Source: Candidatus Thiodiazotropha endoloripes
Lineage (GTDB): Bacteria; Pseudomonadota; Gammaproteobacteria; Chromatiales; Chromatiaceae
DNA: 64,000 nucleotides
Assembly (NCBI RefSeq): GCF_001708965.1
Contig: NZ_LVJW01000003.1
Span: forward strand, 806,001-870,000
Direction of reading: 5' to 3'
Shown piece by piece: positions 1,604-41,154 of the stretch. Position numbers and translations under genes: made by a program. The notes below the pieces were generated by a model, which ran no database searches, had not been told where the DNA came from, and saw nothing but the letters and a program-made list of their open reading frames with translations. Positions within the stretch are counted from its first letter, which is position 1. Each line of letters opens with the position of its first letter.

Positions 1604-4396
1604 CTAATGGGCCTGATTTGACAGGGGTTTACGCCTAAGGAAAGATTGTCCATTTGAAGGTCTAGTCCACTCATATTGAAGCTTCTCTACTCGCTTTATT
1701 GCATCTCTCCAGGTACGACTATTTGTCTGTGTGATGCCAAGAAATTTTGTAATGCTCTTGATAGAGCACTTTCCTTCAGAATCAGGAAGAGAATTAAGAT
1801 AAGCAATTATCCTCTCTGCTATATCTAATACTGCATCAGAGATACCATGCAGAGCTAAGTGTTTTGGGGTGTATACCATCTTTTTTGCATTGGGCATGAC
1901 ACTTAGCAGGAGGTTCATTGCGTGTTCTTCTTTATGCAAAACCCAGCATATCATATTGCCTGCTTTTCCATTGATCACGTGCCGCATATTACCCCTGGAT
2001 AGCCCCTGATACAGAATGTCAGCCTGTAGACTATCAGATACTCTCTTGATCTCTTTATTGTCCACTGAATAGGCCAAATCTCTGCTTTGTCCAACTATTG
2101 AGGCAGCTATCTCGGAGGGATCACGATAGATCACCCCTAGAGTCACAGCATATTTGACATGTGAGTAGAGATTACTCCCTCGCTCGTTGCCCCAGGTAAT
2201 CACATGACAGCGCTCCCTGAATCCAAGTCCAAGGGTGTCTAAATATTCCAATATCTGGGTTTTGTAATTGACATCATTCCGGTCTTTGTACGTAAAAACC
2301 AGGAAGTCTTCCCCGGTAGGTATCAGCTTTGGCACAATATGCCCTAGCTCTTTCAAATAGAGGTTACTCTCAGCTGTTTGTCGGAATTCCTGACTCAGAT
2401 AGTCCCTACTGCTTTTCACGGGCGCATGATACAAAGTAACGTTCTCATAGTCTTTCTGAATATGTCCAATATCACCCAACTTGACGCTCTTGTCATACTG
2501 CATTAGCTGGTTTACTTCAGCGCTGGCATCCAACACTACTATCTTTTTCACTTCATCCGGTACAACCACTTCAAAGTTGATATAAGCCTTATTACTGTGC
2601 GCTCGAATCAGTTTCCCGCTGGAACCAGCTTGCTCAACTAATCGTTCCAGGTTTGTTGATCCACTCTTGCCAAGTATCGTTTTCAAACATCTGAGATAGA
2701 TCATTCGATCATCTGAAAAATCCGGCATATCTATCTCTGATTCATACTGTTCAGGATCCAATCGAACTTTTACTGTCTCAAGATAACTGTCCATATAATC
2801 ATACTGCTCTTCAAACCCTTTTCTAACACGTCCCTCGGCCTTTCTGGTCTGATAGATGTCTTTCCATTTAGCAATATCCCCTCTAACCTGATCAATATCC
2901 AGGTAGTTACCTTGGGTGGTAACCAGCGCTTCGTCCCATACGATCAGATCCCTTTTACGACCCTGAAAGTAGAGGTATCTATCAGGATTGGTGAATCTAT
3001 GTTGAACACGACCATGAGCTAACAGTAAGAATTGATACTCTTCAGCTTCTGTTATATCAATTGAGGGGATCTCTTTGTGTATATGTCCTGATGAATGCAA
3101 TAAACCTATGTCCGTTTCAGGTATCCCGTCTTCAATCATTGAGTTTTTGAGCGATGCCAGATCTTCGATTCGTTCAGCGCAATAGGCTACTGAGGTTTCT
3201 AGATCTTTGTGATAGATGGAGCTTACAAAGCTACGGAAAGTCGTGGTCTTACCCATCCCAGTAGGCAGTGGGTAAGCTACTCTAATGGGCTTACTCGAAT
3301 AAGCGGCATAGGCTAAGCCTTCTGTGATCGCCCAAATTGCTCTTGCGTGAGTAGTATTTACCTGATTATCGTATTTTGTAAGAAGGTTGCAAGTTCGCTC
3401 AAAAGTATTGTGAGTAAGTTCCAGCGCTTTAGATTGATACTCGTCCTCGACTAGTAGTGCCAGATCATCAGCGGTAATCCTGATATCCTGCTTTTTTTCG
3501 GGATCTGCAGTGGGATTTATCCCCGCAAGATATCGGAGCTTACCGATGCCAGCCTTGTTCGGATGGTCATCTCGGATACTTTCAACAACCCTGTAAAAGG
3601 TCTCTTGATCATACTTATCAGGTGCTTGTTGGCTCCACTCATCAAGCGTATCAATGACTTCTACAGAACGCCCATAGGTATTTAAGGCCGCAGCAATTGC
3701 CTCCACCCATTCTGCACGGGTGCAACTAGGGTCAATTTTTTCAAGATAAAGGCTCAGCTCATCTTTTTGCGGTGACCAAGTTGAAATCTGTGTTTGTTCT
3801 GGCTGCTCAGGAACAATTTTGTCAGGTATCTTCACCGTGTGAGGATTGAAACGGTGATTGCCTGGTGGCACCTCATGAAGAAATGATTCACCATCCAGAA
3901 TGTATTTGGGATACAACCATTTCTGGGCAGGATTCTTTCCTGCAGGATCCAGTGGACCGAGCAGATCGTTGAAGTGATCCCACACCGCTCTATGGTGTGC
4001 TACTGCATCTACACCAACCAGTGGTTCGAGATACGGGATGACTACCCTCATTCTTGGAATCGCCTGGGTATGCTTAGCTGTTGTGTGGATTAAGCACTCG
4101 ATGTCGAGTTCACTCAACACACCTCGAATCAGCTCAAAACTGGCATGGCCATCATCAATATCCAAAACCACTCCGTAGATCAAATCCATGTTTGAATGGG
4201 CAGCCGAATCCAAATCCTTGAACGTACAGAGGGTGTAAGCTTGTGTATTGTGTTCTTTTAAAGTCTGAGTCACTTCGTCTACGGGATGTATATCATCCAT
4301 AGAGATCAGGCTCTGGGCTAGATTATCCACTACTACCGCCTCATTGGGCTGAGAGTGGACATTGTTAAATACTGTTATAACTAATTGATTATTCAT
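1604..4396 (-). CDS. Primase-helicase fusion (AEP-type primase, PriCT-like region, SF2-like ATPase)
   Basis: 930 residues. Near the N-terminus GVVLDIDDG (residues 75-83) gives the acidic hhDhD motif I of archaeo-eukaryotic primases, followed by a basic HTTAKHTQ..PRMR stretch (104-117) like the second catalytic block. Residues about 215-295 (AEWVEAIAAALNTYG, DEWSQQAPDKYD) resemble the primase C-terminal PriCT_2 region. A Walker A (LPTGMGKTT, 377-385) and a Walker B of DEAx type (LIVWDEA, 484-490) then indicate a helicase/ATPase module, and the last 70 residues look like a winged-helix domain. Such fusions prime and open the element's own replication origin in satellites and plasmids. Length and domain order fit; exact family membership is inferred. 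It is transcribed in the same direction as the small gene and integrase. Confidence 0.65.
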   Translation of the reverse strand: MNNQLVITVFNNVHSQPNEAVVVDNLAQSLISMDDIHPVDEVTQTLKEHNTQAYTLCTFKDLDSAAHSNMDLIYGVVLDIDDGHASFELIRGVLSELDIECLIHTTAKHTQAIPRMRVVIPYLEPLVGVDAVAHHRAVWDHFNDLLGPLDPAGKNPAQKWLYPKYILDGESFLHEVPPGNHRFNPHTVKIPDKIVPEQPEQTQISTWSPQKDELSLYLEKIDPSCTRAEWVEAIAAALNTYGRSVEVIDTLDEWSQQAPDKYDQETFYRVVESIRDDHPNKAGIGKLRYLAGINPTADPEKKQDIRITADDLALLVEDEYQSKALELTHNTFERTCNLLTKYDNQVNTTHARAIWAITEGLAYAAYSSKPIRVAYPLPTGMGKTTTFRSFVSSIYHKDLETSVAYCAERIEDLASLKNSMIEDGIPETDIGLLHSSGHIHKEIPSIDITEAEEYQFLLLAHGRVQHRFTNPDRYLYFQGRKRDLIVWDEALVTTQGNYLDIDQVRGDIAKWKDIYQTRKAEGRVRKGFEEQYDYMDSYLETVKVRLDPEQYESEIDMPDFSDDRMIYLRCLKTILGKSGSTNLERLVEQAGSSGKLIRAHSNKAYINFEVVVPDEVKKIVVLDASAEVNQLMQYDKSVKLGDIGHIQKDYENVTLYHAPVKSSRDYLSQEFRQTAESNLYLKELGHIVPKLIPTGEDFLVFTYKDRNDVNYKTQILEYLDTLGLGFRERCHVITWGNERGSNLYSHVKYAVTLGVIYRDPSEIAASIVGQSRDLAYSVDNKEIKRVSDSLQADILYQGLSRGNMRHVINGKAGNMICWVLHKEEHAMNLLLSVMPNAKKMVYTPKHLALHGISDAVLDIAERIIAYLNSLPDSEGKCSIKSITKFLGITQTNSRTWRDAIKRVEKLQYEWTRPSNGQSFLRRKPLSNQAH

Positions 4397-38742: not shown

Positions 38743-39780
38743 ATGCGTTTGTCAGACTTCGATTACTTTCTGCCGGATGAGCTTATCGCCCAATACCCTC
38801 CAGAGGAGCGTGGGTCCAGCCGTCTGTTGGTGCTTCCGCCAAACCAGTCATCGCCTGAGGATCGGCAGTTTTCCGAACTGCCAGGGTTGCTCTCCGCAGG
38901 CGATCTGCTGATCTTCAACGATACCCGGGTGATGAAAGCCAGGTTGCATGGTAAAAAGGAGACAGGTGGGCGGGTCGAAGTGCTGATTGAGCGGGTTACC
39001 GAGCCCCGCCGGGCTCTCGCTCAGGTGCGGGCGAGTAAATCACCCAAAATCAACAGTAAAATTCTGTTGGATGATGATGCCCGTGTCGAAGTGATCGGTA
39101 GGGAGGGGGAGTTTTTTCAACTGCGTGCCCTCGATAGGGATTTCCATGCCTTAATGGATCAACAGGGTCATATGCCGCTACCTCCCTACATAACCCGTCA
39201 GGACGAAGGGGTGGATGAGAGCCGATATCAGACCGTATATGCCGAGAAGAGAGGTGCAGTTGCCGCTCCCACGGCAGGTCTCCACTTCTCCAATGAGATG
39301 TTGGCAGAGTTGGCGGAAAAGGGTGTCAATCAGGCAACAGTGACCCTGCATGTTGGAGCCGGTACATTTCAACCGGTACGGGTGGATGACCTGGATCAGC
39401 ATGTGATGCATCGGGAGTATGCGGAGGTTGATCGGGCCGTTTGTGATCTCATTTCCAAGACCAAACAACAGGATGGGCGGGTAATTGCGGTTGGTACAAC
39501 CAGTGTGCGAAGTCTGGAGTCTGCCGCTCAAACCGGTGTTCTGCAACCCTTTCATGGTGATACCCGGCTGTTCATCCGTCCGGGCTTTCAGTTCAATGTG
39601 GTTGACGCCATGATCACCAATTTCCACCTGCCCCAGTCAACCCTGATGATGCTGGTTTCCGCATTTTCCGGATATGAGCGGCTGATGGGTGCTTATCGGC
39701 ATGCTGTTGAACAGCGTTATCGTTTCTTCAGCTACGGGGATGCGATGTTTCTCACGCCAGGTGAATCATCTTCGGCTTAA
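38743..39780 (+). CDS. queA: S-adenosylmethionine:tRNA ribosyltransferase-isomerase
   Basis: 345 residues, the usual length. The N-terminal MRLSDFDYFLPDELIAQYPPEERGSSRLLVL, the central AVAAPTAGLHFSNEML and TLHVGAGTFQPVR, and the C-terminal TNFHLPQSTLMMLVSAF are family signatures. It adds the epoxycyclopentane of queuosine using SAM as the ribosyl donor. It precedes tgt, as usual. Confidence 0.97.
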   Translation: MRLSDFDYFLPDELIAQYPPEERGSSRLLVLPPNQSSPEDRQFSELPGLLSAGDLLIFNDTRVMKARLHGKKETGGRVEVLIERVTEPRRALAQVRASKSPKINSKILLDDDARVEVIGREGEFFQLRALDRDFHALMDQQGHMPLPPYITRQDEGVDESRYQTVYAEKRGAVAAPTAGLHFSNEMLAELAEKGVNQATVTLHVGAGTFQPVRVDDLDQHVMHREYAEVDRAVCDLISKTKQQDGRVIAVGTTSVRSLESAAQTGVLQPFHGDTRLFIRPGFQFNVVDAMITNFHLPQSTLMMLVSAFSGYERLMGAYRHAVEQRYRFFSYGDAMFLTPGESSSA

Positions 39781-39832: not shown

Positions 39833-39861
39833 AAAAAAAAGCGCGGCAGGGGTGCCGCGCT
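39833..39861 (-). terminator. Minus-strand terminator of the candidate small RNA
   Basis: AGCGCGGCA (39840-39848) and TGCCGCGCT (39853-39861) form a 9-bp GC-rich stem. On the minus strand it is followed by eight T (eight A at 39833-39840 on +). No annotated minus-strand gene ends here, so it must end an unannotated transcript. Confidence 0.85.
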
Positions 39862-39920
39862 GAAGTATTCCACCAAAGGAGGATGGAGGAGTGTGTGCTG
39901 ATGCATAATGATCAGCACAT
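39833..39920 (-). ncRNA. Candidate small RNA with tandem UCCUCC motifs
   Basis: About 88 bases on the minus strand between queA and tgt. From the predicted 5' end there is a 9-bp hairpin (TGTGCTGAT/ATCAGCACA, 39894-39919). Two anti-Shine-Dalgarno-like motifs follow, CUCCUCC (39885-39891) and UCCUCC (39878-39883), the second possibly displayed in the loop of a small CCAUC/GGUGG stem. The strong terminator closes the transcript. The overall plan resembles C-rich-loop regulators such as CUYCCUCC 'cuckoo' RNAs, which bind ribosome sites. A promoter fits just upstream. No coding potential is evident. Expression is not shown. Confidence 0.6.
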
Positions 39921-39926
39921 TTGTAT

Positions 39927-39954
39927 TTTCTAATATTATGAGCATTGAAGTCAA
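39927..39954 (-). promoter_or_regulatory. Predicted sigma-70 promoter of the small RNA
   Basis: Reading on the minus strand, TTGACT (39949-39954) is a near-consensus -35. Sixteen bases on is TAGAAA (39927-39932), a weaker -10. A start near 39920 would place the first hairpin at the very 5' end. Confidence 0.45.
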
Positions 39955-40011
39955 GAAACATTAGGGATTTCCCTAATACGAGTTCACAGAACATGACATT
40001 TCCTAGCATGA

Positions 40012-41154
<1,143 letters not shown>

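What the first reader, a model, noticed from the sequence alone, without database searches (positions are those of the whole stretch)
39833..39954. Candidate CCUCC-motif small RNA between queA and tgt
On the minus strand a near-consensus -35 (TTGACT) with a -10 16 bases on is followed by a 9-bp 5' hairpin. Two exposed UCCUCC anti-Shine-Dalgarno motifs come next, one possibly in a small loop, and then a 9-bp GC-rich terminator with eight T. No protein gene lies on this strand. The plan matches C-rich-loop riboregulators that block ribosome sites, and I know of no described RNA at this locus.
Basis: partly seen in the sequence, partly recalled or inferred. Interest (0 to 1): 0.8.

Follow-up and report, generated by a model that had tools for sequence, protein, structure and literature searches.

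The report
Conserved ribosome-site-masking small RNA gene
Between two tRNA-modification genes of a bacterium related to clam symbionts lies a conserved small RNA gene whose exposed CU-rich loop should mask ribosome-binding sites of messenger RNAs; it appears to be a relative, not yet in the RNA family library, of small RNAs known from Burkholderia and Bordetella.

Summary
The feature is real and more than chance. The minus-strand unit 39954-39833 (promoter, 5' hairpin, CUCCUCCAUCCUCCUUUGGUGG core, terminator) recurs between queA and tgt in 21 of 22 genomes of the genus. A paralogue scores in 20 of 22; its place before rplM was seen in 19. A model built from it hits 110 of 274 genomes of the class. 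The 5' hairpin co-varies; the second UCCUCCUU sits in a loop.

No Rfam family reaches its gathering score here. The nearest is RF02278 ("toxic sRNA": Burkholderia NcS27; Bordetella S17 is akin), 32.6 bits against 50. Intermediates pass both models. The rplM copies of relatives and the RF02278 members share coq7/osmC neighbours.

Best explanation: a trans-acting, probably Hfq-assisted RNA that masks Shine-Dalgarno sites, likely braking transport and catabolism. Shown: conservation, structure, kinship. Inferred: transcription, Hfq binding, targets, repression; my target search found nothing convincing.

The parts
39833..39920 (-). small RNA, about 88 nt (5' end about 39920-39917)
   Evidence: fold z -7.58; own model R1 95.6 bits, built partly from this sequence; conserved in 21 of 22 genomes of the genus between queA and tgt
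39949..39954 (-). -35 box TTGACT
   Evidence: TTGACA in 114 and TTGACT in 10 of 128 unique homologous promoter stretches, which were selected for TTGAC
39925..39930 (-). -10 box GAAAAT (18-bp spacer here)
   Evidence: GAAACT, GAAAAT, GATAAT or GAAGAT in 86 of 128 homologues
39894..39919 (-). 5' hairpin (9-bp stem, extended in the predicted fold)
   Evidence: arms co-vary: own pairs -12.29, swapped -5.65 +/- 0.37 kcal/mol, 0 of 500 swaps, 49 non-redundant segments
39885..39890 (-). first UCCUCC anti-Shine-Dalgarno motif, partly paired
   Evidence: mean unpaired probability 0.03-0.8 along it in 140 unique homologues; kept in 20 of 21 queA-tgt copies of the genus; absent from the rplM copies of the genus
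39878..39883 (-). second UCCUCC motif, in the loop UCCUCCUU
   Evidence: mean unpaired probability 0.65-1.0; CCUCCUUUGGUGG invariant in the 40 aligned sequences, 38 of which were picked by that string or by BLAST to this one
39869..39890 (-). core hairpin UCCUCCA / UGGUGGA closing the loop
   Evidence: the pairs never vary within the family, so covariation says nothing; same layout as the first hairpin of RF02278
39833..39861 (-). intrinsic terminator, 9-bp stem and T8
   Evidence: 6 of its 9 consensus pairs have changes on both sides with the pair kept
39961..39976 (.). palindrome TTAGGG-N4-CCCTAA, likely operator of the small RNA (or of divergent tgt)
   Evidence: exact in 12 and one mismatch in 9 of 21 queA-tgt copies of the genus, 6-7 bp before the -35; best match of 19 rplM copies has 4 or more mismatches; three sites within one mismatch in the own genome
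38743..39780 (+). queA (context)
   Evidence: Pfam PF02547, 442.8 bits
40048..41154 (+). tgt (context)
   Evidence: Pfam PF01702, 555.1 bits

Best explanation
It is a gene for a free-standing trans-acting small RNA, the gammaproteobacterial counterpart of the Betaproteobacteria 'toxic' or double-hairpin RNAs (RF02278; NcS27, akin to S17). A sigma-70 promoter makes an RNA of about 88 nt. A 5' hairpin covers its start, a CU-rich stretch carries two anti-Shine-Dalgarno motifs, the second held open as the loop UCCUCCUU, and a terminator hairpin ends in U8, a usual Hfq landing site (recalled). The single-stranded CUCC and the loop pair with the Shine-Dalgarno region of selected mRNAs and stop ribosome entry. 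By analogy with NcS27 and S17 the targets are probably transporters and catabolic genes. The rplM copy is probably the older one and the queA-tgt copy a duplicate in the Chromatiales/Sedimenticola lineage, which in this genus carries its own operator. Shown: sequence, structure, conservation, paralogy, kinship. Inferred: transcription, Hfq binding, targets, sign of regulation, age of the copies.
For: Conserved unit in 21 of 22 genomes of the genus and 110 of 274 of the class, 88 of 222 genera. 5' hairpin kept by compensating change, terminator too. Loop exposed in 140 unique homologues. RF02278 is the best-scoring Rfam model, full length 1-64; 12 of 20 relative loci match it at 30.4-38.5 bits; in the class 78 of 93 RF02278 places coincide with places of my model; L137 (Gallionellaceae) and L203 pass RF02278's cut-off (51.8, 50.5) and my model (64.7, 68.5 bits). 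The two RF02278 members over the cut-off lie beside osmC and coq7; 17 of 33 rplM-type loci with enough upstream DNA have coq7 or osmC within 6 kb upstream; S17 lies beside coq7 (PMC11722255). Hfq gene present, 104.6 bits. Function of the relatives: S17 represses BP2158 at its 5' region by base pairing, restored by compensating changes; NcS27 slows growth and catabolism (PMC10987360 and PMC5688073 passages).
Against: The window RNA is below RF02278's cut-off (32.6 against 50), as are all 20 loci. At class scale my model missed the two RF02278 members over the cut-off at E <= 0.001; searched directly they score 37.3 and 25.2 bits. Those two genomes belong to one family (f108), and their osmC-coq7 pair is inverted relative to the RNA, with rplM 94 and 269 kb away. 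16 of 33 rplM-type loci showed no coq7/osmC within reach, and how often coq7 neighbours rplM without the RNA was not tested. In the own genome the rplM copy has a Na/Ca-antiporter-like gene upstream, not coq7. No expression data. Target search unconvincing: of 7 plus 7 pattern places only 3 stand before an ORF of 40 aa or more, and the one followed is in 4 of 22 genomes, with the site kept in 2.
Confidence: 0.78

Rival explanations
1. General translation brake: the RNA mimics the 3' end of 16S rRNA and competes for Shine-Dalgarno sequences at large (or binds a ribosomal factor), rather than controlling chosen mRNAs.
For: AUCCUCCUUU resembles the 16S tail (recalled). RF02278 RNAs were named for stopping E. 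coli growth and NcS27 overexpression slows growth. The core barely varies across very different genomes. No specific target emerged here.
Against: Its relative S17 did not impair exponential growth of E. coli and acts on about 92 genes, with site-specific compensation at BP2158.
Confidence: 0.1
2. Cis-acting leader: the original copy is an attenuator of rplM-rpsI, with the terminator controlled for L13 feedback.
For: In 50 of 118 named stretches rplM starts within 1 kb downstream on the same strand, with the terminator in between.
Against: 28 of 118 lie in the queA/tgt region and 22 elsewhere (16 more too near an end, 2 with rplM 1-6 kb away). The window copy faces away from tgt into the 3' end of queA; the next minus-strand gene, a hydrolase, lies beyond queA, over 1 kb away. 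Control of rplM itself was not tested.
Confidence: 0.06
3. No RNA gene: the parts are the bidirectional terminator of queA and the tgt promoter region.
For: The plus strand of the 5' hairpin scores as a terminator after queA, and a plus-strand promoter-like site precedes tgt.
Against: The same promoter-hairpin-core-terminator unit stands before rplM and at other places without queA. The most conserved part is the CU-rich core, which neither a terminator nor a promoter needs.
Confidence: 0.03
4. The likeness to RF02278 is convergence: an unrelated CCUCC small RNA family of gammaproteobacteria that works alike.
For: Score below the cut-off; several unrelated anti-Shine-Dalgarno RNA families exist (NfeR1/alpha-r14, PMC10746234; NmsR, named); inverted gene order.
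Against: Full-length alignment to both hairpins, intermediates over both thresholds, shared coq7/osmC neighbourhood.
Confidence: 0.15

Closest known systems
RF02278 Betaproteobacteria toxic small RNA / double-hairpin RNAs NcS03, NcS05, NcS27, NcS62 of Burkholderia cenocepacia
   Same: CUCC lead, hairpin with a CCUCC loop closed by UCCA/UGGA, then a GC terminator; full-length model match; several copies per genome
   Different: Extra co-varying 5' hairpin, 4 nt shorter first hairpin, different loci (rplM, queA-tgt), below the gathering score
S17 of Bordetella pertussis (PMC11722255; abstract, results and discussion read)
   Same: Conserved CU-rich site and loop, terminator, coq7 neighbour as in some gamma rplM loci; proposed masking of ribosome sites
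   Different: S17 is made as 190 nt and cut by RNase E to 67 nt; here the promoter sits directly before an RNA of about 88 nt
NfeR1 / alpha-r14 (RF02344) and mmgR (RF00519) of Sinorhizobium
   Same: Hairpins with CCUCC-type loops that silence mRNAs at the start site (PMC10746234 passages)
   Different: Defining CCUCCUCCC absent; model scores 13.5 (cut-off 58.8) and 23.4 (cut-off 41)
NmsR of Neisseria (RF02877 for NmsRb)
   Same: Two CU-rich unpaired stretches complementary to ribosome sites (as described in PMC5688073 passages)
   Different: 20.3 bits against a cut-off of 52

Membership tests
RF02278 Betaproteobacteria toxic sRNA | score at or above Rfam's gathering cut-off (50 bits) | tested here: not met
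   32.6 bits; 0 of 20 relative loci over it; 2 of 274 class genomes over it
RF02278 Betaproteobacteria toxic sRNA | double-hairpin layout with CCUCC loop, aligned over the whole model | tested here: met
   model positions 1-64 of 64 for the window; alignment of a near relative
RF02278 Betaproteobacteria toxic sRNA | continuity with accepted members through intermediates | tested here: met
   L137 and L203 over both models; 78 of 93 RF02278 places coincide with R1 places
RF02278 / S17 | shared gene neighbourhood (coq7, osmC) | tested here: inconclusive
   17 of 33 rplM-type loci, 6 of 25 other loci, 0 of 21 queA/tgt loci with at least 2.5 kb upstream; the RF02278 members have it inverted; not at the window's own copies
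RF02278 Betaproteobacteria toxic sRNA | growth inhibition when overexpressed | not testable with these tools
   bench test; S17 itself did not inhibit exponential growth
Hfq-dependent sRNA | Hfq binding | not testable with these tools
   hfq gene present and U8 tail only make it possible
NfeR1 / alpha-r14 | CCUCCUCCC motif in three hairpin loops | tested here: not met
   absent from the RNA; 13.5 bits against 58.8
mmgR (RF00519) | gathering score 41 bits | tested here: not met
   23.4 bits
NmsR (RF02877) | gathering score 52 bits | tested here: not met
   20.3 bits

The most novel reading that the evidence does not exclude
One anti-Shine-Dalgarno RNA lineage, older than the split of Beta- and Gammaproteobacteria and born beside osmC-coq7-rplM, is a core post-transcriptional regulator of a large part of the class, in sulphur-oxidising and symbiotic lineages above all, though it was described only from betaproteobacterial RNAs called toxic. 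In clam-symbiont relatives a second copy under its own operator lets a separate signal call on the same regulon.
Probability: 0.45. Interest if true: 0.7.

Novelty: new variant of a known kind. Interest (0 to 1): 0.55.

Why it matters
If right, a regulator known from a few Burkholderia and Bordetella studies is a widespread RNA present in at least 110 of 274 sampled genomes of the class, including many sulphur oxidisers without any described small RNA of this kind in the papers I searched. It gives Rfam a basis to widen RF02278 or add a sister family, and gives experimenters defined loci, a fixed seed (UCCUCCUU) and a second, separately regulated copy to test.

Tried and rejected
Targets: exact AAAGGAGGA plus ATG spacing gave 7 places (two overlapping; reversed-pattern control 2), ATGGAGGAG plus ATG 7 places (control 0; one is the RNA gene itself, two overlap). 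Only three of the first set and none of the second start an ORF of 40 aa or more at that ATG. The one followed, an ABC-transporter substrate-binding-like protein (Pfam 34 bits), is in 4 of 22 genomes of the genus, with AAAGGAGGA kept in 2. Not a convincing target.

Operator regulon: two further near-palindromes in the own genome lie beside a catechol-dioxygenase-like region and a Nudix/NfeD-like region (names from reading the sequences, not from a search); no common theme.

Mobile elements: no plasmid match by distant blastn, no viral-contig match to the core-plus-T-run pattern.

The 140 transcripts were picked by core and TTGAC; I cut the 5' segments 9 nt before CCTCC, which removed the 3' arm of the rplM copies of the genus and gave them z near 0. 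The 65 sequences tabulated were picked for a stable 5' segment. The swap test is the fairer one. One search had too loose a threshold (34,071 papers) and says nothing on Thiodiazotropha.

Full report
What is there. On the minus strand between queA (38743-39780) and tgt (40048-41154; Pfam) stands a complete small RNA unit: -35 TTGACT (39954-39949), -10 GAAAAT (39930-39925), a 5' hairpin, the core CUCCUCCAUCCUCCUUUGGUGG, and a 9-bp GC-rich terminator with T8 ending at 39833. The 88-nt RNA folds at -37 kcal/mol, z -7.58, with 0 of 200 shuffles as good. Promoter and motif scans alone would not have convinced.

Conservation. A BLAST search of 56 relatives found matches in 34, in 13 of 35 genera. 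Among 22 genomes of the genus, 21 have the RNA between queA and tgt, in the same orientation. A second copy scores in 20 of 22; in 19 of these I saw the antiporter-like gene upstream and rplM-rpsI downstream, and in G013 the context was not checked because its core differs. The own genome holds exactly two exact TCCTCCTTTGGTGG: this one and C6:922590-922671.

Wider spread. Model R1, built from 40 sequences, matches 110 of 274 genomes of the class at E <= 0.001, 88 of 222 genera. Of the 118, 50 have rplM within 1 kb downstream, 2 have it 1-6 kb downstream, 28 lie in the queA/tgt region, 22 elsewhere and 16 too near an end to tell.

Structure. In 140 unique homologues the second motif UCCUCCUU is unpaired with mean probability 0.65-1.0, while CCA of the first motif pairs with UGG. 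The 5' segment folds with z below -1 in 120 of 140. In 49 non-redundant segments the two halves pair at -12.29 kcal/mol, against -5.65 +/- 0.37 when halves are swapped between sequences, 0 of 500 swaps reaching it. The terminator shows both-sided changes at 6 of its 9 consensus pairs; the core hairpin does not vary, so covariation says nothing about it.

Promoter and control. The best -10 lies 17 bp from the -35 in 111 of 128 unique stretches, within a strongly kept TATATTAGAAAAT-like context. In the 21 queA-tgt copies of the genus a palindrome TTAGGG-N4-CCCTAA lies 6-7 bp before the -35 (exact in 12, one mismatch in 9), and it is absent from 19 rplM copies. The own genome has three such sites within one mismatch (the reversed-pattern control gave 16 per strand, so the motif is rare rather than enriched). 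It looks like an operator specific to this copy.

Kinship. No family reaches its gathering score here. At relaxed thresholds RF02278 comes first: 32.6 bits against a cut-off of 50, over the whole model. Twelve of 20 relative loci match it at 30.4-38.5 bits, none over the cut-off. In 274 class genomes RF02278 finds 83 genomes, two of them over the cut-off, none of 14 control genomes, and 78 of its 93 places coincide with R1 places. The 15 that do not include both over-cut-off ones; searched directly these score 37.3 and 25.2 bits with R1. L137 (Gallionellaceae UBA2239) and L203 (title not shown) pass RF02278's cut-off at 51.8 and 50.5 bits and score 64.7 and 68.5 with R1; they were found through the gamma core string, so the RF02278 score is the independent part.

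Neighbourhood. The two over-cut-off members (G257 and G141, one family) lie beside osmC and coq7, with rplM 94 and 269 kb away. S17 lies beside coq7. Of 33 named rplM-type loci with at least 2.5 kb upstream, 17 have coq7 or osmC within 6 kb upstream, against 6 of 25 other loci and 0 of 21 queA/tgt loci. The module is inverted between the two groups, and the own genome's rplM copy lacks it. I take this as support for common descent, not proof.

Mechanism. From the relatives: S17 needs Hfq for its level, about 92 genes rise without it, 70 genes have complementarity at or near the ribosome site, and repression of BP2158 was lost and restored by matching changes (PMC11722255, abstract, results and discussion read). 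NcS27 overexpression attenuates growth and its predicted targets are transport and catabolism genes (PMC5688073 and PMC10987360, passages). The window genome has hfq (104.6 bits). I infer the same here: single-stranded CUCC and the UCCUCCUU loop mask Shine-Dalgarno sites. My own target search gave nothing convincing.

Novelty. I found no description of this RNA in Rfam at gathering scores or in the papers searched (uninformative). Seven papers name RF02278; one of them annotates such an RNA in Aeromonas salmonicida, a gammaproteobacterium (PMC8780938, one passage), so the gamma side is not wholly unmentioned. New variant of a known kind.

Noticed in passing
L295:2002-2082 (-) = G000:C3:1133901-1133981: A weaker R1 match (34.8 bits) begins inside the end of a phaB-like reductase gene and covers its 3' end: a hairpin with loop CUUCUCCCUC and a GC terminator, beside phasin and PHB-accumulation-regulator genes. 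Seen also in G012 and G001 (the three inspected; the reductase, phasin and regulator genes were checked by Pfam in the own genome only). Recalls mmgR.
   Followed up: partly
window 39961-39976: Palindrome TTAGGG-N4-CCCTAA before the small RNA promoter, kept within one mismatch in 21 of 21 queA-tgt copies of the genus; may control the small RNA, tgt or both.
   Followed up: partly
128 unique promoter stretches of homologues; window about 39943-39925: The stretch TATATTAGAAAAT around the -10 is kept more strictly than a sigma-70 promoter would need, across many genera; unexplained.
   Followed up: no
G210:C27, G178:C83, G102:C80, G205:C26, G296:C3: Two or three copies of the RNA (or of RF02278-like matches) in tandem within a few hundred bases.
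   Followed up: no
L003:3203-3330 and 3376-3503 (+): Two RtT RNA repeats (RF00391, 61.2 bits each) after a tRNA downstream of rplM-rpsI.
   Followed up: no
L166:6135-6193: In a Sedimenticola record a copy with a different terminator lies beside a polyphosphate kinase gene; similar sequences in L055, L118, L148.
   Followed up: no
L137:255-326 (+): Group II intron-like match (37.6 bits, cut-off 40) directly beside the Gallionellaceae copy.
   Followed up: no
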